A stretch of 64,000 bases of DNA from Paramacrobiotus metropolitanus. Lineage: Eukaryota > Tardigrada > Eutardigrada > Parachela > Macrobiotidae. The notes below the pieces were generated by a model, which saw only the letters and a list, made by a program, of their open reading frames with translations, did no database searches and was not told where the DNA came from. Made by a program: the position numbers and the translations under genes. This document shows, piece by piece, positions 28,462 through 43,204 of this stretch (position 1 is the first letter of the stretch; each line of letters opens with the position of its first letter). The stretch covers positions 62,001 through 126,000 of the forward strand of contig NW_026570242.1 in NCBI RefSeq assembly GCF_019649055.1, given 5' to 3'.

Positions 28462-31400
28462 ATGCGAGAATCAATCTTTTTGTTTTCATGTTGTTGTGTC
28501 TTATTATCCTTTTGCTCAAATTCAGGTAATATTAAACGTATTAACGTGATGGAAACGAGAAACGAGATGGTTATGGAAACGAGATTTGCAATACTTTTCA
28601 TTAATTTCTGTCGCAGTGTATTTGATTGTTCGACGTTATTTATAAAGCTGGTTGTTTTTTATGTTCTCTGCGGCTTAGTGTTGTTTGGCCTTCAACATTT
28701 CCGACTTATGTATTAGCTGCATCACTTAAACTATTATTGTTTTAAAATATAGATAGATATGCGCAAGCTCATACATTATACTTCTCTGGTGTGCATCTAG
28801 TGCACGTAAAAGGTCATCAGCTAGGTTGGCGTCATCTGTGGCAGTTAATGGAGATGTGTACCGAAAAATACTGGATGTGCCTGTTATTATAGTCTTAAAT
28901 TTCGTGTTGTATATTAAAGGCATGATAACATTAATGGAAAGTTTGTAAAACTAACATGCTGCCCATTGAAAAATGATTTTCTAGTATCTGCTCAAAATTT
29001 ACCGGACACTGGTAATCAGCCAACGCCATGCGTGGACTCTGCCGGCAACGTTTATTCCCCGGGCGCCGTTGTGCCGCTGCATCATCCCTGCCGCCAGTGC
29101 GTGTGCGGTGCCAAAGGGAACATCTTATGCGAATCCTTGAACAAAATCACAGAATGCCGACCCCCACCGGATGCTCCGTGCCGCAATATTAGCGGACATG
29201 TCTGCTGCGAACGGAGTTTCGCTTGCGACCGTGAGTGCAGCGTTGCTGTCTGTTCTGATAAAATTGATCTGTAATGTGACCGATGGTCGATTACATAATG
29301 TAGTAATGGAGAAGAACGCAAGCGCGACACTGGAAATTTATACGATGTCACAATGACGTAAAATTGGATGACATTGATGATTTGTCTCATCTGTGGAAAA
29401 TTAAATGTGTAGCGAAAATTCTTGCAAAACTGTCGTTCAGTAACATTTTTGTACAAATTTGGTATCGATTTGCTGTTTTGCGAGTAGTTGTGATTTTTGA
29501 GATCTTTTTGCTTTTGGTAACAGTACAACAAAAAATCAAAGTCGGTAACATATACGCAACGTCCTGCACATGCGAGTCAGCCTACTGGGTGTTCTCAGCC
29601 TTTGGAATCATGTAAAGAAATGCCTTTTAATGCAGGTTTAGCGATTTGCCTAGTCGGAGGAGCGGTATACAGGGCAGGCGATTCAATGAAAAACGGGAAC
29701 GAGAAATGCCAGGATTGCCGTTGTGGATCCAATGGAAAGGTCATTTGTGAGGCTGCAGCCCACTGTGGGAGGCCTGCGTGGATTGCTGAACTGGGTGGGA
29801 ATGATTGCACGCCGGTATATTCGGGCAAGGAATGCTGCCCCTCGGACTATCTGTGCAGTAAGTAAACTTTTTCTAATGGTTCTTTTTAGAGAGTAAAAAA
29901 AGGCTCGGCAGGTAGTTCCTTCCTATTCCTATCTTCTGTATAGCTTTGTTAACTTGCTTAAGATTGTTGGTCCTCAACATGCATGTACAACTTGTGTGAC
30001 CTTTTCTTATTTGCAGAGTGCACAATATTCAATGAGACACTCCTCAGCACAGGTCCCCGGAGCGTTGCACGCTGCTCAGCCTGCTCGTGTTCAAAGTCGA
30101 CCGGTGTCAGCAGCTGTCAGCCGGTCGCCTGCAAATTACCGTATAAATTTTCGGATAAATGCCGTGCCATTTATCGTGGTGATGACTGTTGTCCTGTTGA
30201 CTACGATTGTCCGGGGAGTGCCGTTAAAAGTGGTGCTGGAATGAAGTACCATCAGAATCTGGAGGCTCCCATCAAGCAGTACGCTTCCACGTCCATCAAT
30301 GCCGCACAGCGGTATATCGACGGCGGTCGTGATCAGTACGATATTCTGCCGTACGGGCTACCACTGGTCAGTAATACAACGGGACCGCTGGGACGATCGG
30401 ACGATATGCCACCGCCGACAACGGAAAAGGTGGAAATTGTACCAACTGCCACAGTGACTACAACGCGGGACACCACAACGGTGGAAATGACGACGGAAAC
30501 TTCGAAGCGCCCGGTGGAGAAGAATATGCGCTTGATATCCATTCCTATCGGGGGAATTGAAGTGGTTCCGAAAAGTGGGCGTAATTCATCGGGGGTGTTT
30601 GTTACTGTCAAAGGTGAAGTTGCGGAGGTGAATGGCACGGTGAAGAATCCTTCACCGCCGCAGCCGGAGACAAAAACCACGCAGGATCCGTTGCTGCGTG
30701 TCTTCCAAAAAGTCGCCGAGAAAATTACCCGAACGACGCCCCCGGTGAGCGATAGTCCGGACATACTGCGCTACGATGTGTCGGCGCTGATAACCGATAC
30801 GACTCGCAGTTCACCGGAAGTCATGAATAAAATATGGACAACGGTGGCATCGACACCGACTCCCGAAGTATCGCTAAGCACCTCGACGGTCACAACGACG
30901 CCCCCGCCTAGCCATCGAACGGATGCAGCCACCACGGAGATAGCGGAGAAGAATGACAAGGGAAGCGGTCACTCGACGGTGGAGGATGTCGAATCGTCCA
31001 CGACTGGGATGACCACTTTGCCGGCGGTGTCAAGTTCAAGTGAAAGCACAACTAGGTAAGTCGGTTGTATGTTGCTCTGCGATGTATATCAGGTGTCTGT
31101 TTAGATGGATTATCAATTGTTTATGGTCTTCGAGTGTATGATAGGACGAACCGGTAGCATAATAAGACAGACTAAGGAGAATAAGTATCTCTAATATCGT
31201 ATACCATACACGAGTGACTCCAGATATGCAAAGGATTTGCTACACGATTTGTTTGACGAATTCGAACAATGATTCGCAAAATTTTCTTTCACTTTAGCAT
31301 TTGTATTTGAAGCATGATTTTAGTTAAATTTAGCTAAACTGGTAATATGTCTAACCGTGAATCTTGTTGTTTTTGCAGTACTGTGAACACGAGCACCAAG

Positions 31401-33245
31401 AATCTTGAGAGCGATACCATCGCAGCAATTTCGATAACAACCGGCCACGCGGATGGTAAAACTGTGTCCAATTTGTCTGCTGAAAATACCACAGCAGACG
31501 TTCTTTCTGGCTCGTCCTTTTGGAAATCCCCAACGAATTTCAATCGCGGCGCCTTGGGTCTCACGGGAAATTTAACGCGTCATCACACCGACGCCGCATA
31601 CTCTATGAGTTCAGCGGATGCGGGCTTTTTAGCCGATGACTTGTCGTACAAACTGTTCAGTGTCAATTTCTTCCGAGTCCCGCTCGGCGAGACATCCGCA
31701 GCAGCGCGCAGTGCCAAATCCCTGTTGCTTTCCGATGCGGAGATGGCTGCGAACGCTACCTTGAACTCGACCGAGACGACCAGTTCGGATTTCATCGCAC
31801 CACAAGGTCAGCCGGCGGCCGGATTACCGCTGATCAATGCAACCGCCGCCAATGTGACCAGCAGCAGCAACGATACAGCGAGCAGCACTGAACTTGATCT
31901 ACTGGCGGCGGCAGACTCCAGTCAACTGGCTAACGTTACACTGCCACCTGATTTCCAGGTGGTGACGTTCGGATCAATGCCTCGTCCCAACCGGCCGAAA
32001 TCCGCCGGTCAACTGCTGCCGCCCATGATGCCGGGGCTGGGTGGGCCCGGTGGTCCCCTCCTGCCGTTCATGACCGAAGTGGAGTTCAAAGGCTTTGGCA
32101 TGATGCCGGAGATAGAATTGAAGCCGTTGGGCGGCGGGGATTTAGCGGGATTAGCAGGGATGGCCGCCATGTTAGGCGGTGGCGGTGGCCCTCCGGGGCC
32201 GTCCATTGGCGGGCAGTTGGCGGGGGCGCCGCCGCAACCTCAACCACAACTTGGCAATCCGGTCAATCGTCTGGCTGCGGCCGTTGCTGCGCAGGATGCC
32301 ATGGAGGAACTGGCGGAAGGCGGAACCGGTGACGGTGCCCTGGCGCTGGCAGCTGCTATGATGCAGAGTCCAAATCGTCCCATGGCGGCCAAGTTAGTGG
32401 AGAACACGAAAATGGGGTTCATTACAACGCCAGTTCCAACCGTGGCGATAGTGTTCCCCAACGGCTCGATGGATACCGCCACAGCGAAGTCCCCCATAGG
32501 TCGCATGGTAGCGGCAGAAAGCGGTTCTCCATCACAAACCGGCCAACCCTTGGCCCATTATAACTCCATGTTCGGCTCACAAAATCATCACTTTCAGTAT
32601 CCGACTATGTCCAATCCGTGGTCCAATCCGATCTTTACCGGCGCAGCCAGCAATCCACAGCCGACAACCACCACCGATAAACCGGCCCCGACGAAGGATC
32701 CGTTTCCCTTTGAAGCGGTAGTTGATGTTCTGGAAGAGGGACGCGGACCGGCGTTGACCCAATTGTTGGGGGCGTTGCACTATATGGGTCGGCCGTCACC
32801 GATGATGCCGCCAGCATACGGGATGATGCCGCAAGCGCGATCTTTTGGCGGGATGCATATGGGTGGTATGCAGCGCAGCAGTTACTTCCCCAATTACCAG
32901 TCTAACGGGTTTGGGCTGGAAGGGTTAGGGGCACTAGGTATGCTGCCCTTTAGCTTGTTTGGAGGCGCGCTATCGGAACCGACGCCGAAGACAGGGCGGG
33001 TCCCTGTGGCGAAATCCAGTCAGGCAGCGCAACCGGAAGGTACTCCAGCGCAGCCCCAGCGACGTCTGAATCCGGGAATGAACGCTGGATCAGAAAATAC
33101 CAGTCCACTACGACCGATGTACAAGGTGGGCTCGACGATGACGGAATCGCCGTTGGAGGGCGCAGTACAACCAATGTCGTCGGGCGTCATGGGACAGCCG
33201 GCTCCGCTGATTGCGGCCATGCAGCTGGGATTATTTGAGCGCTGA
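28462..33245 (+). CDS. Large secreted protein with three VWC domains and a Gly/Met/Pro-rich tail
   Basis: Five exons (28462-28525, 28985-29230, 29636-29857, 30017-31055, 31379-33245) join in phase to 1,145 residues. Exon 1 encodes a signal peptide (MRESIFLFSCCCVLLSFC). Each of the next exons holds one von Willebrand C domain: CRQCVCGAKGNILC...GHVCCERSFAC, CQDCRCGSNGKVIC...KECCPSDYLC, and CSACSCSKSTG...DDCCPVDYDC. A Thr/Ser/Pro-rich stretch (about 300-520), likely O-glycosylated, follows, with N-glycosylation sites. The last exon starts with an Asn/Ser-rich part and then becomes rich in Gly, Met, Pro and Ala (GGGGPPGP, GGMHMGGMQRSSY). There is no transmembrane segment. VWC domains often bind BMP-type ligands or matrix, but the C-terminal 600 residues match nothing I recognise. 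An extracellular matrix or cuticle role is inference. Confidence 0.88.
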
Positions 33246-33669: not shown

Positions 33670-33822
33670 CTAGGCGCTATATGTTTTAACTTTAAGCTCA
33701 ATAACGCTGCGGCAGATTGGGCATGCTTTCAGATTTTTCGCGCACCCTTCACAAGCAACCATGTGACCACACGGAACGAATGTGATATTCTTAGGAAGAT
33801 CTTCACAGATTCGGCAGGCATT
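33670..33822 (-). other. C3HC4 RING finger of the clathrin-like protein
   Basis: Zinc ligands in order: CRIC, FVPC, GH, VAC, EGC, KAC, PIC. The position at the very C-terminus, the FVPCGH spacing and the ending resemble IAP and Mind-bomb RINGs rather than the RING-H2 of Vps11/Vps18. The stop TAG is at 33672-33670. Confidence 0.88.
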
Positions 33823-36800
33823 AGCATCACGAGGGACGCTCATCTCCAGATCACCCGACACTAAACACGCACAAAGCAAATCACTCAAACAGTCGAAAAA
33901 CAAACATTGTGCATGAATCTTACTAAGTCTGTCCAGATCCTGGATACGGCTTGTCTTCCCGTACGCAAGAGCCAAGGTCACAGTAATACATGAATCCTTC
34001 GCAATGGAGCGTGCACCCTCAAGGAACTGGATTAGTAATTCCCACTCAGCTAAATACGTAACCTTAAATTTTCGCAAATTTTTTCACACTGCACTTGATT
34101 ACCGAAAGCATCGTCGGAATGCACCATGGAACAAACCCAGTTGTAGTCCGTAAAACAACCGGCATCCACAAAATAGCGCAAGGCATACACTAGTTCGCCG
34201 TTTTTCATATATGTTAGGCCAACTGCAGCTAACATTTTCGGATCTCGACTCAAATCCGCCAACTCTTTCATCGTGCCTAAATCCATGTCTTTTTGAGACG
34301 ACAACAACTGCAATGAAACATTTTACGAACACACAGCTTTCTAACACCCACAGTCGTCTTTAGCAGTCCAACCTGTGCTGCCTGATTCCAACACTTTCCT
34401 CTGATAAAAACCTTCTTTGCAATTCGCAGCATCCCTGCTTCTTGAAGGACCGAACCCACTACACCGGGATCGTATGAATATAATTGTTCACCGTACATTA
34501 TCTCCATCTGTTCTTCCGATAATTCTCCATTCAAAAGCGATCTGAGCGACCACAATTGCAAAAACCTAGAAACCATCAAGCGACAATTTAGAAATGCGAC
34601 GCTCTTATGCAAGGATGTTACTCACTGAACTTGCTCCGGGGCATAGTGTTTTCTGAACAGTTTCCGGATTAATGCTTGTGTTTCCGATATCAGCTCAGTT
34701 TTGCCAATAACTGGGACAAGTACGGAAACATCTTCGAAAACATCGTAGATTGCGTTTTCGTCTCCCTCGGTCATTTCTAACATTGTGGTCAGAAGGTCCA
34801 ACCGGAATCGATTATCGGCGCTTAAAACCTTGTCCCACAAATTTTCACTGCGTGACTTTAAAAGGTGACTCAATTGACGGCGGTACGAACCCAACTGGCC
34901 ACTAACCTAAACCAACGGAAAGTTACAACTGGATCGCAGACGCAGCTGGACAAGTAACTCATACTCGGATGAAGTGTTCACTGAGATTCCGCTCTTCATA
35001 AATTGTCAGGGCTATGGAGAAATCATTCTGTTCCTCACACCACTGACCGATGGCAACCGCATCATATAATTTATTATTTCTAAAATGGAGAAATCTTTCA
35101 ACAATGACAGCACATGTTCTGTGTATACATCACTCTTCCACACAGTAACTTTTGCTTAAAATTATCCTAAAACAGGACTTCAATATTATGGTTTCAGACC
35201 TGAGGAACGGATATAACTTTTCAAGGTGTTTCCGTTCGATGTAAAGCTTGGCCAAACGAGAATGTACAGCTGGGTCTGTGACACCCTTTGCAACTAGGAA
35301 TTCTAAAAACTTTCGCAAAGCAGCAATTCTGCAAAAAATCCAAGCGTCAAAACACGTACGCTAAAAATCTAAACTATTTTTTACGATATTTACTGGCTTT
35401 GGTCCTGCTCCAGTTCCTTCAAAATGCTATCCTGAACGGTTTGGAGCATGCCGGCGGTCAATCCAATATCGAAATTCACGTCCAATATCGTTAAATCATC
35501 GTTTAAGCCCAGTAAATATTTCAAAACTGACTCAAGCTGCGCGATGATTTCCTTGAAAACCAAGGAACACAGTTATTAGAACTTATAAAACAAATTCAAC
35601 TGTCCCATAAATATTACAGCCAAAGAAAAATTTGGCCAAAAAACAGAAAACCCACCTCTCCAGGGAGCTCTCTTAACAGTGGCCGAAGTCGCACTGGAAG
35701 CCGATTCTTCAGCCGGTAGATGACCAATTGAATGAGCGAAGAGTTCTTAATGCAAAACGTCTCCAAAAGCGGATCAATAACAGCCGGCGGAGCGTTTTCC
35801 ATGAGCAAGCAATCCAGTACAATTTTCGGATAAGGAGTTTTTATGTTGGAAACAAAATGTGTCAAAGCCTTCAGCTGATCAGTTTTCAATCCAGCCTAGA
35901 TAATAAATGTTTTCGTATGCATTGTATGGTTTATGGCTGCAATACAGTCCAAATAAATCAAGAAAAAACGAAGATGTGGTTCAATACCTTGACATATCTG
36001 CTCACAGCACTTTCAGACATCTTGCCCGGCGAAAGTGTGTTTAAAAATAGAAACACTCCTGTAAAGGTTCAATAAAAAATAAAATATTTTTATCAGGTGG
36101 CAATACATTCTAACAACACGGCAGTATTATCACTTTAAGTACTGCACTCAAACCACTTCACAATCAAAACAATTAAGTACTCACTTTTCTCGTCCGAATG
36201 TTGCTCAAAAATTGTAACAACCTTATCAACGCCGACCTTTTCGCCAACTTTTGCAGCAAAATGGCTCAAAGGAAGGTGTGGTAAGCCATGTAGCCGTACT
36301 ATGCATTCCCTAAGAACTTCAAGTGCCTGTGCGGCGGACAGATGGTCCATATTTAACTGGCAAAATGGAAGAAGCCTATCCAAACTGGAGCCGGAACGCA
36401 GAATAGCCAAAAATACAGACATAAACACATCGTTCGGTAATGAGCTACTATGCGCCAAAGCGTATCGCACTGCTGCATCTGGCATATTCTTCTCCAACAA
36501 GAGGGGAATGATACTAGAATAGGTTGCAGTTATCTGGATAACCTAAGATATAATTCAAATTCATCACCTGTAAACCCTCTTTTCAGGTAGAAAGTGAATA
36601 ATATTATAAACCATTTAATTTCTCACCTGTCCCTCGTTATTCACAACAGTAACTCCTCTTTTCGATCGTACCACATCCAAAATGCAGTCAGTAGCAGAAT
36701 CATTAAGTTTCACAGACTTCAGATGGCACATGCCCCGGAAATCAAATATATGGACGTATCCCCTTTTAGTGACTACAAACGCTAAAGTTTCGCTAGCGTG

Positions 36801-38265
36801 ACTACTTATCTGTAACGAAAATCAAGCAGTGTAAGAGTAAGAAACCAAAAACATCGACATCTTCAAGTTCTAACCTTCACAGCAACTGGGAAATCTTTTT
36901 CAATCCCATTTTCGTCAACAGGATATTTCAATTCGGCGAAATTCCTAATATTACATTTCACAGCAGCAGCGGGTTGTTCTACGCAGTCCACTTCAACGCA
37001 TTTTAAAAGGATACATGTCATATCCACACTCGTATCGGCAACAAGTATCTGCTGCAAACGGCTGGCTTCATTTACAAAAGCACCAGCAAATCCGCTGACT
37101 TTGCCGGAAACTGATTGTTTCACGTTGAACACTTCCAATGAGCCTTTGGCGTGATCGACCTAAAAATCCAAAAGTACTCGTATGTACCATCGCACATGTT
37201 TTCTCCTCATTCCTTACATCCAGCTGGACGGCGGCCACAAAAGACCAGTTCCTTGCCTGGCTCTGCTGGTAATCAGTTATCGTATGATTTTTCACAAAAG
37301 TCTCCGACAACTGTAATTTGGCGCTGGCCTTTCCTGTCATATCCACGTGGAAGATTTCCCGCCCGGGGATGACTACAATACGATTATCGTCCAGCCATCC
37401 CGTGAACTGTATCGGCCACCGCCCATTGCTGACCGTCAGATCGTTTCCCGCATCAAAACCAGCGGCACCCGTTATCCATACCACATTGCCGGCATCTGCA
37501 GAAATACCTCATAAAACTAACGATAAGCTTAAGTACAACATTACCGTATAAACTTATCATATCGGACGAGCTATCAATGACCTATCAACATACTTATCAA
37601 CAACACGCGATTGCGTCGTTTAACACAGCACATTTTCAAGTTTCAAGGTTAATTAATGCGTCTGCAGAGTGCAGACTGGTATCGTGGTATGTCATACACA
37701 AGTCACCGAAACTGATCAATGTGGATCACGTGCAAATTAATCCACCGTTAGACAACATCCGAACTCCGAATACCGTAATTATCGAATTATAAGCCCTGGG
37801 TCATAAATATTTAGTATTTTTAGGTGTTTTTAACAATTATCTCACTCTGCATTATGCATAATTTCCCGTTGGGACTGCGAGTGGCGCTGACGATGCGTCC
37901 GTCCATTCCGTGCCGCTTGTACACGACCGTGAAGACTTGCGATCCCTTGCCGCCAGCCAGATCGATATAGGTCACCGAGGGGCTTGACCACAGACCGCCC
38001 TGATCGCACACCGTGATGTATCGGTCGGATGTCATTGTTACGCACTTGCCGCTCATCCATTTCGATTGCGTTAATGCGGGAATCTGCAAAAAAAACGAAC
38101 ATACCACCACTGTTATATAACAATCACAACTGCAACCAAATGAATTAAATTATGGTAACAGTTCAAAGTGCGCCAGTAAACACGCTGTTTGACTCTGTGA
38201 TGTACAGTACATACTTCGGCAATGGTCTTGAAAGTCAACAGCGAATTTGTAGAATCTGTGGCCAT
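33670..38265 (-). CDS. Clathrin heavy chain-like protein with C-terminal IAP-type RING finger
   Basis: About 15 short exons, roughly 1,000-1,100 residues. Exons 38265-38215 (MATDSTNSLLTFKTIAE), 38083-37846, 37495-37218 and 37159-36875 join in phase and match the clathrin terminal-domain propeller (for example CVTMTSDRYI, KDFPVAVKISSH, TKRGYVHIFDF). Later exons match the leg repeats (DPAVHSRLAKLYIERKHLEKLYPFLR region; SENLWDKVLSADNRFR; EWELLIQFLEGARS). About 250 residues of the distal leg seem to be missing after PDAAVRYALA. In the last exon the clathrin match stops near human residue 1,300 and is followed without a break by CRIC...FVPCGH...CEGC...CPIC, ending KVKTYSA. The knee-to-hub part, including the trimerisation region, is absent. 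Predicted role: a monomeric clathrin-derived scaffold with ubiquitin ligase activity (inference). Alternative considered: HOPS/CORVET RING subunits, but the match to clathrin is better throughout. Confidence 0.85.
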
Positions 38266-41694: not shown

Positions 41695-43204
41695 ATGTGG
41701 TCAAAACCTGCAATGGCTACGAAAATCACTGATACAGTGGCAAGAAATGTCGCAGTTGCGGATCAGTCTTCTTTTCTTATAGTCAAGGCTTTGGGACCAT
41801 TGTCTTTTGTGGTGCATGATGTGACCCTTAATGAGGAGGAAAAGGTACATAGGAGTAGATGTCACTTGCTGTTAGACCATTATTTTATTTTCCGTATTTC
41901 TGAGTCGCGCGGACTGTACAATACTTGAAATACACACATACCATTTTGGTGTGATATAATCACTAATCAGTCACATTTTTATTATTGAACAACGTTGAAC
42001 GCACTCAACGCAGCAACATTAAGAGCGCAGTAACGGAATACGTGTTCTTGTGAGGTCACAATCGGCGAAAGGAATCACTGCACTTGCAAAACCTACAAAA
42101 CCATGCCGCATGAATCTTGTGAGCATATTTGTTGGATTCTCATCAAGAAGTTCAAGGTCCACCCTAAAGACGAAAGCAAGTAGCCTATGCCGGTAATCAA
42201 ACTCCATTAACAAAAAACGTTTATTGTAGTGCTATTTCAGAGTGGTCTAAGCGAGACAAGCCTACGCTCCTTGTTCAATAAGGACTATGTATCCCAAGGG
42301 AAATCGAACACTCTTGTGGAGAAAGCACCTCGAAAATCAACCCATGGGAATACAGGTTTAAGGGTTCTAACACGTGACGATGAGTGTCCGATCTGTTTCG
42401 ACAAGTTCTTCCAGTCTTCGAAGGGAGTCACGCAGTGCCAGTAAGTCAATCTGGGCCTAATAACTCCAAAATAAGGAAATGTTGATCATTACTAATATAT
42501 TCGTTGGATGCAGAACCTGCAAGAATTACGTTCACATTCCCTGTCGTGACCTTTGGAAACGCAACGGCGATGCCGATACCAAAGACCGGTGTCCGTATTG
42601 TCGCGGGCATTTCGGTGCCAGCGCGCCGATTCCCAATCGTTGCGTTCCGTGGCGAAAAAACAAAACCATCCCAACTTCGAAATCGGATTCACTCGATCCC
42701 CGAATAACTATTCCCGAGCCATCGAAGACAGATTTTGTCGACTGTCTGCAAGGGCTATCGCTCCAGCACGTCAGTGACCAACAGTATCTGTCGCCGATGC
42801 AGTCAAGCGATTTCGTACTGACGAGCAGTGCTTTCAAGCCTCAAATTCGCCTCCACAACAGCATTCCCCTATCAAGATCGCAAAATGCTGCCGTGCGCCC
42901 GAGAACACTGGGCGTCGCTGGAAAAGGATTGGCCCAATTTAATTCCACGCAGAAAGTGGTCGGTCCAATTCTGGAGGCAAGGAAACTCTCAAAAACGATT
43001 CCCAAGCGAAGTCAGAGCCAGAAACTGCTGCTGGACAAGACTGTCGCAGCCATCCGTTTTGTGCAACAGGTGGGGAACAAAGGACAGGCAGTTGTGGAAA
43101 AAACCTTTACGCAACTGGCCCATGCTCTGCAAATGCAGAATGCCGCAGAAGACACGCGCGCAAGGATCACACGAAGTGCTTCCGGTAGTGTAATGAGGAA
43201 TTAG
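41695..43204 (+). CDS. ZSWIM2: ZSWIM2-like E3 ubiquitin ligase (SWIM + RING)
   Basis: Exons 41695-41844, 42055-42175, 42230-42440 and 42514-43204 join in phase to 390 residues. A SWIM zinc domain (HCTCKTYKTMPHESCEHICW; ligands CxC...CxH at 42079-42126) is followed by KKFKVHPKDE and LFQSGLSE, which align with ZSWIM2 (KKFKL...FQLGL), then a RING-like domain split across an intron (CPICFD...C, then CKNYVHIPC...CPYC). Vertebrate ZSWIM2 has a ZZ finger and a second RING; neither is seen here, and the C-terminal 200 residues are basic and unstructured. Intron 2 uses a GC donor (AA|GCAAGT); other donors break the frame. The start is uncertain: the frame is open upstream to 41626, and an upstream exon is possible. 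It would ubiquitinate unknown substrates. Confidence 0.78.

What the first reader, a model, noticed from the sequence alone, without database searches (positions are those of the whole stretch)
33670..38265. Clathrin heavy chain rebuilt as a RING-finger protein
Seen: the clathrin-like leg and an IAP-type C3HC4 RING are read from the same last exon (from about 34035 to 33670) with no stop and no obligatory intron between them; a possible 45-nt intron in the junction would also keep frame. Known: clathrin heavy chain (about 1,675 residues) trimerises through its C-terminal hub, which is missing here. Inference: this protein cannot form triskelia and may instead bring an E3 ligase to clathrin adaptors through its retained propeller. 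I know of no described clathrin-RING fusion; HOPS/CORVET RING subunits are an analogous design but a different lineage.
Basis: partly seen in the sequence, partly recalled or inferred. Interest (0 to 1): 0.9.

Follow-up and report, generated by a model that had tools for sequence, protein, structure and literature searches.

The report
Clathrin leg fused to IAP-type RING
An animal genome, probably a tardigrade's, carries a small family of genes in which the front two thirds of the vesicle-coat protein clathrin has been joined to a ubiquitin-ligase RING finger, which suggests that a vesicle-coat protein was turned into a new kind of protein-tagging enzyme.

Summary
Minus strand 38265-33670 carries a 16-exon gene (1033 aa): clathrin-type propeller and leg, then a cIAP/XIAP-type RING that ends the protein. 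It is one of nine RING-bearing loci on four contigs of this genome, two of them tandem clusters. Descent from clathrin heavy chain (CHC) is shown by profile (E=4.5e-63) and by eight introns at identical column and phase in the genome's own near-complete CHC gene. Most of CHC ~373-657 and all after ~1197, the hub, is missing. Zinc ligands and linchpin Arg are kept in 8 of 8 aligned RINGs. The propeller is the least constrained part; the RING is the most constrained in the C7 cluster but not in C50. Best reading: a clathrin-derived RING E3 ligase family with a re-tooled recognition arm. Expression, activity and distribution in other species are untested. The genome is probably Paramacrobiotus metropolitanus.

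The parts
33670..38265 (-). clathrin-RING gene, coding part, 16 exons, 1033 aa
   Evidence: splice model; paralogue-guided models; Pfam Clathrin and zf-C3HC4_3
36627..38265 (-). exons 1-5 (residues 1-345): clathrin-type N-terminal propeller
   Evidence: profile positions 80-386 match CHC 75-372; introns shared with CHC
36875..37159 (-). exon 4 (residues 190-284): highest omega of the propeller exons computed
   Evidence: omega 0.60, 0.60, 0.72 in three independent paralogue pairs; not the highest in one further pair, C7A-C7D
33924..36542 (-). exons 6-15 (residues 346-970): clathrin heavy-chain-repeat leg
   Evidence: profile positions 406-974 match CHC 658-1197
33861..33923 (-). 63-nt junction intron, GT-AG, phase 1, open if retained
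   Evidence: same column and phase in 6 of 7 paralogue models
33670..33860 (-). exon 16: IAP-type C3HC4 RING (ligands C986 C989 C1001 H1003 C1007 C1010 C1017 C1020), linchpin R1021, tail Y1031, stop
   Evidence: Pfam E=1.3e-14; phmmer cIAP2 E=1.1e-12; paralogue alignment; Foldseek best hit cIAP2 RING

Best explanation
A copy of the clathrin heavy chain gene lost most of the region between propeller and leg and everything beyond the leg, and gained an IAP-type RING as a new last exon; the fused gene then multiplied, partly in tandem. The product works as a RING-dimer E3 ubiquitin ligase: the C-terminal RING dimerises as in cIAP1 and activates E2~ubiquitin, taking over from clathrin's trimerisation hub as the self-association point, while the diverged propeller and leg act as a long substrate- or partner-binding arm. 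Shown: gene, fusion, descent from CHC, purifying selection, loss of adaptor-box residues. Inferred: expression, dimerisation, ligase activity, substrate binding by the propeller.
For: Open 16-exon model. Nine RING-bearing loci. CHC match E=4.5e-63, no Vps among the 60 rows shown of 102. Eight of 15 introns at identical column and phase in own CHC; 200,000 random placements gave a mean of 0.08 and at most 3. Family rows on one side of the tree against CHC, 100/100. Zn ligands and linchpin Arg invariant in 8 of 8 aligned RINGs; F or Y at the cIAP1 F616 place in 9 of 9 loci (cIAP1 facts from passages of PMC6349121). A stop directly or one codon after the tail in 9 of 9. Pooled omega over three independent pairs: RING 0.15, leg 0.25, propeller 0.40. 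Foldseek best hit: cIAP2 RING bound to UbcH5b, E=8.9e-5.
Against: No transcript, protein or activity data. RING versus leg constraint is not significant (p=0.058) and fails inside C50: RING omega 0.29, 0.49, 0.31 against leg 0.25, 0.19, 0.30 in its three pairs (two of them involve C50c's damaged RING). At the cIAP1 M575 place (E2 contact) the window gene has Glu, and the eight aligned RINGs Glu, Asp or Met, so E2 choice may differ. C50c's RING reads in two frames, C50a lacks the middle of the leg, C278 shows no RING. RING donor unresolved. The spliced protein was not folded; the RING model has moderate confidence (mean pLDDT 69.8).
Confidence: 0.62

Rival explanations
1. One reading: an adaptor-directed E3. 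The propeller still binds clathrin adaptors by clathrin-box peptides and brings the RING to coated pits.
For: Propeller homology to CHC 75-372; W164 of the arrestin box kept in 7 of 8.
Against: Q89, F91, K98, Q152, I154, Q192 kept in 0 of 8, K96 and L183 in 1 of 8; own CHC keeps all of them. These residues carry box binding (PMC5182127 and PMC11543927, passages). The propeller is the least constrained part.
Confidence: 0.1
2. Structural RING: as proposed for HOPS/CORVET, alpha-COP or SEA, the RING joins subunits of a coat or tether and is not a ligase.
For: Same layout of propeller, solenoid, C-terminal RING in those complexes (PMC4678705, passages); RING not specially constrained inside C50.
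Against: Linchpin Arg invariant in 8 of 8 and aromatic tail in 9 of 9 with cIAP1 spacing point to E2~Ub activation; the RING matches IAPs first.
Confidence: 0.18
3. Regulator of clathrin itself: the leg pairs with canonical clathrin legs and the RING ubiquitylates or disturbs the coat.
For: Leg region 658-1197 of CHC is retained; a CHC gene is present as partner.
Against: Only 212 of 948 aligned sites identical to own CHC; no leg contact was tested.
Confidence: 0.07
4. A HOPS/CORVET subunit (Vps11/18/41/8) misread as clathrin.
For: Same domain order.
Against: CHC E=4.5e-63, no Vps row among the 60 shown of 102, the last of which has E=0.02; Pfam VPS11 model at 0.034 in 1 of 5 members; a VPS11 gene lies elsewhere, C2:1315119-1316687; eight introns shared with CHC.
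Confidence: 0.005
5. Two neighbouring genes or a decayed copy joined by the model.
For: No RNA evidence; some paralogues are damaged.
Against: Same junction column and phase in 6 of 7 paralogue models; junction introns of 63-308 nt in nine loci; omega below 1 on both sides of the junction.
Confidence: 0.03

Closest known systems
Clathrin heavy chain (CLTC; own gene at G000:C5:2897150-2889887)
   Same: Propeller 75-372 and leg 658-1197 homologous; eight intron positions and phases identical
   Different: Most of the about 285 residues between them missing, hub missing, adaptor-box residues lost, RING added, 212 of 948 aligned sites identical
IAP RING E3 ligases (cIAP1, cIAP2, XIAP, BIRC7)
   Same: C-terminal C3HC4 RING with linchpin Arg and aromatic tail at the same spacing
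   Different: No BIR, UBA or CARD in the Pfam scan of the 1033-aa product; the N-terminal part is clathrin
HOPS/CORVET RING subunits (Vps8, Vps11, Vps18, Vps39 in PMC4678705; Vps41 recalled)
   Same: Propeller, alpha-solenoid, C-terminal RING (passages)
   Different: Different lineage by profile and by introns; RING of IAP type
alpha-COP and SEA RING subunits
   Same: Protocoatomer-type proteins with RING or RING-like domains (PMC4678705, passages)
   Different: Not among the matches shown; clathrin is not named as RING-bearing in the passages read

Membership tests
Clathrin heavy chain | CHC-type N-terminal propeller by homology | tested here: met
   profile E=5e-22 to CHC 75-372
Clathrin heavy chain | clathrin heavy chain repeats of the leg | tested here: met
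   Pfam PF00637 in 5 of 5 members scanned; CHC 658-1197
Clathrin heavy chain | descent from the CHC gene | tested here: met
   8 of 15 introns identical in column and phase
Clathrin heavy chain | proximal leg, light-chain-binding region and trimerisation domain (location recalled) | tested here: not met
   homology ends at CHC 1197; the frame ends with the RING
Clathrin heavy chain | adaptor-binding box residues of the propeller | tested here: not met
   Q89, Q152, Q192 kept in 0 of 8
Clathrin heavy chain | triskelion and coat formation | not testable with these tools
   needs protein
IAP-type RING E3 ligase | eight C3HC4 zinc ligands | tested here: met
   invariant in 8 of 8 aligned RINGs; C50c left out, its RING reads in two frames
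IAP-type RING E3 ligase | linchpin Arg and aromatic C-terminal tail (cIAP1 R606, F616) | tested here: met
   R1021 and Y1031 here; Arg in 8 of 8, F or Y in 9 of 9; cIAP1 residues from passages of PMC6349121
IAP-type RING E3 ligase | BIR domains (needed to be called an IAP) | tested here: not met
   no BIR in the Pfam scan up to E=10
IAP-type RING E3 ligase | ubiquitin ligase activity | not testable with these tools
   needs protein
HOPS/CORVET Vps RING subunits | propeller, solenoid, RING order | tested here: met
HOPS/CORVET Vps RING subunits | best profile match to a Vps family | tested here: not met
   CHC E=4.5e-63; no Vps among the 60 rows shown of 102

The most novel reading that the evidence does not exclude
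A TRIM-like recognition system built on a clathrin scaffold: a tandemly expanding family with gene birth and decay, in which a dimeric RING tags whatever the fast-evolving propeller (exon 4 above all) binds, for example foreign or damaged assemblies at endosomes, possibly in immunity or in clean-up after desiccation.
Probability: 0.15. Interest if true: 0.88.

Novelty: new variant of a known kind. Interest (0 to 1): 0.74.

Why it matters
Clathrin heavy chain is among the most conserved trafficking proteins. A selected, duplicated family in which its propeller and leg carry a ligase-type RING instead of the trimerisation hub would show that a coat subunit can be turned into an E3 ligase, a parallel to the RING-bearing tethers (HOPS/CORVET), coatomer and SEA. 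It also makes testable what the clathrin arm binds once adaptor boxes and hub are gone.

Tried and rejected
Vps/HOPS identity: rejected. Chance open frame or pseudogene: rejected for the window gene. Adaptor targeting by the boxes: tested, not supported; at 22% identity single columns can be misaligned, but conserved neighbours (AG before Q89, W164) support the register. The W-box residue F27 was taken by recall (F26 in yeast); it is Gly in 8 of 8. Royle-box Q14, Q16, N17 are kept in 0 of 8; F9 and E11 could not be compared in most models.

Donor of the RING: a tree of 27 RINGs (8 family, 19 others of this genome; a 20th fetched stretch, C44, gave no RING by my pattern) was unresolved. By hand, 17 of the top 20 non-family RING hits lie within 1 kb of a BIR match. 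Both lists stop at 150 rows, and the genome is rich in IAPs, so this fits an IAP-type RING but names no donor.

Relatives elsewhere: the viral-contig scan found none; genome contigs was not scanned (bacteria and archaea only), and no eukaryotic genome other than G000 is held, so distribution in other species could not be tested.

Literature, titles and starts of abstracts only: no paper on a clathrin heavy chain-RING protein among those listed (0 papers; 10 of 10; 12 of 39; 2 of 2; 6 of 6; 10 of 46). Nothing wider is claimed.

Limits of the counts: one search scored 44 of 216 candidates, so nine loci is a lower bound. Zero stops and GT donors in paralogue models are built into my aligner in part and are not counted as evidence. 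C206 and C278 (partial) were left out; C50c out. Profile A1 holds 5 of the 9 RING-bearing members. Models C7A (3.5-kb intron, doubtful exon), C7B exon 15 and the 5' end of C206 are uncertain. Between clusters dS is saturated in most pairs, so omega is used only within clusters.

After re-checking my calls I lowered the best explanation from 0.66 to 0.62 and raised the structural-RING rival from 0.17 to 0.18, because the RING is not the most constrained part inside C50 and the junction column is shared by 6 of 7, not 7 of 7, models.
Full report
What is there. On the minus strand of the window a gene runs from an ATG at 38265 to a TAG ending at 33670, with 16 exons, 15 introns chosen by hand as GT-AG, and one open frame of 1033 codons. 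Splice alignment guided by paralogue proteins gives the same introns: 15 of 15 with C50b and 14 of 15 with each of C7B, C7C and C7D, the leg-RING junction with all four. The guides had been modelled from the window protein, so this check is not fully independent. Pfam finds Clathrin (E=7.3e-29) and zf-C3HC4_3 (E=1.3e-14) in the product. In C50b the junction intron is 80 nt and in C206 308 nt, so there splicing is needed to keep the frame.

It is a family. A search of the whole genome G000 (169.8 Mb, 533 contigs; the window is C22:62001-126000) with the protein gave 68 matches at E up to 1, with 44 of 216 candidates scored. They resolve into nine loci with leg and RING: the window gene, C7A to C7D (cluster at C7:2780313-2826708), C50a to C50c (cluster at C50:586376-609043) and C206; plus C278 with the N-terminal part only and a RING relic near C7:2792600. 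Six of the nine give models of 1023 to 1053 aa with an uninterrupted RING (window, C7A, C7B, C7C, C7D, C50b). C50a lacks the middle of the leg, C50c's RING reads in two frames, and C206 was modelled only from the middle of the leg on. In nine of nine a stop follows the RING tail at once or after one codon. A leg-only search matched only these loci and the canonical CHC gene (49 matches, 44 of 44 candidates scored). The ten family rows lie on one side of the tree against own and human CHC (100/100).

Where it comes from. As a profile (5 members), the family matches CHC in the PDB at E=4.5e-63: profile 80-386 to CHC 75-372 and 406-974 to CHC 658-1197; no Vps protein is among the 60 rows shown of 102, the last of which has E=0.02. 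Eight of the window gene's 15 introns fall at the same alignment column and phase as introns of the own CHC gene, and a ninth is one column off; 200,000 random placements gave a mean of 0.08 and never more than 3. That is DNA-level descent from a CHC gene. A VPS11 gene lies elsewhere, at C2:1315119-1316687. The junction intron of the RING is at no CHC intron; it is shared by 6 of the 7 paralogue models aligned, C50c being the exception.

The RING. PDB phmmer puts cIAP2, cIAP1 and XIAP first among RINGs, and the profile likewise puts IAPs first. A model of the RING exon from eight family RINGs (mean pLDDT 69.8) has the cIAP2 RING bound to UbcH5b as best Foldseek hit (E=8.9e-5). In the eight aligned RINGs the eight ligands, the Pro of CPxC and the Arg behind it are invariant. 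In cIAP1 that Arg (R606) is the linchpin, and R614 and F616 of the tail act in trans on ubiquitin in the RING dimer (PMC6349121, passages); here R1021, K1029 and Y1031 stand at the same spacing, and the aromatic is F or Y in all nine loci. At the place of cIAP1 M575 the window gene has Glu. The donor gene is not identified.

Selection. Over three independent paralogue pairs (C7A-C7B, C7C-C7D, C50a-C50b) pooled omega (NG86) is 0.40 for the propeller, 0.25 for the leg and 0.15 for the RING; propeller versus RING p=3e-4, propeller versus leg p=1.2e-4, leg versus RING p=0.058. By pair, the propeller is less constrained than the leg in 9 of 9 within-cluster pairs. The RING is lowest in 6 of 6 C7 pairs (0.07-0.14), but in the three C50 pairs (0.29, 0.49, 0.31) it is not below the leg (0.25, 0.19, 0.30); two of these involve C50c's damaged RING. 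Exon 4 has the highest omega of the propeller exons computed in each of the three independent pairs (0.60, 0.60, 0.72) and in C50b-C50c, but not in C7A-C7D. No exon computed exceeds 1.

What it probably does. The hub, which carries light-chain binding and trimerisation (recalled), is absent, so triskelia are not expected. The adaptor boxes are also changed: Q89, F91, K98, Q152, I154, Q192 and F27 are kept in 0 of 8 members, K96 and L183 in 1 of 8, W164 in 7 of 8, while own CHC keeps all ten (box residues from passages of PMC5182127 and PMC11543927; F27 recalled). A protein with a ligase-type RING and a loosely constrained, re-tooled recognition arm reads best as a substrate-binding RING E3 that dimerises through its RING. 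The steps after the gene itself are inference.

Which animal. Paramacrobiotus sp. TYO has an assembly of 170,483,395 bp in 684 scaffolds, the longest 4,484,941, GC 43.46% (PMC8277472, passages). G000 has 169,799,020 bases and its C1 is 4,484,719 long; it also holds trehalose-phosphate synthase matches, which I recall as a mark of this species among tardigrades. That it is this tardigrade (P. metropolitanus by recall) is likely, not proven.

What is known. Propeller, solenoid and RING in one protein is the layout given for Vps8, Vps11, Vps18, Vps39 and Sea4, and alpha-COP has a RING-like end (PMC4678705, passages). A clathrin heavy chain with a RING was not met in the listings. I file it as a new variant of known kinds: a CHC paralogue family turned RING protein; not CHC in the functional sense, not an IAP, not a HOPS subunit.

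Noticed in passing
whole genome G000: 150 BIR matches listed (cap; 491 first-look candidates), many with identical scores on different contigs: a very large IAP expansion that looks partly spread by repeats.
   Followed up: no
G000:C7:2792547-2792727 (L018): A degenerate RING relic of the clathrin-RING family between C7A and C7B, a sign of gene birth and decay in the cluster.
   Followed up: partly
G000:C278:8422-5126 (L026): A family member with only the propeller part recognisable; no C278 row in the genome-wide RING search (150 of 159 candidates scored).
   Followed up: partly
window 31338-33245 (+): A 635-aa open frame (stop to stop) rich in Pro, Gly, Ala and Met, convergent with the 3' end of the clathrin-RING gene and ending 425 bases from its stop.
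   Followed up: no
window 42464-43204 (+): An open frame with a RING-like Cys/His string (CRTCKNYVHIPC...CPYC), unrelated to the finding.
   Followed up: no
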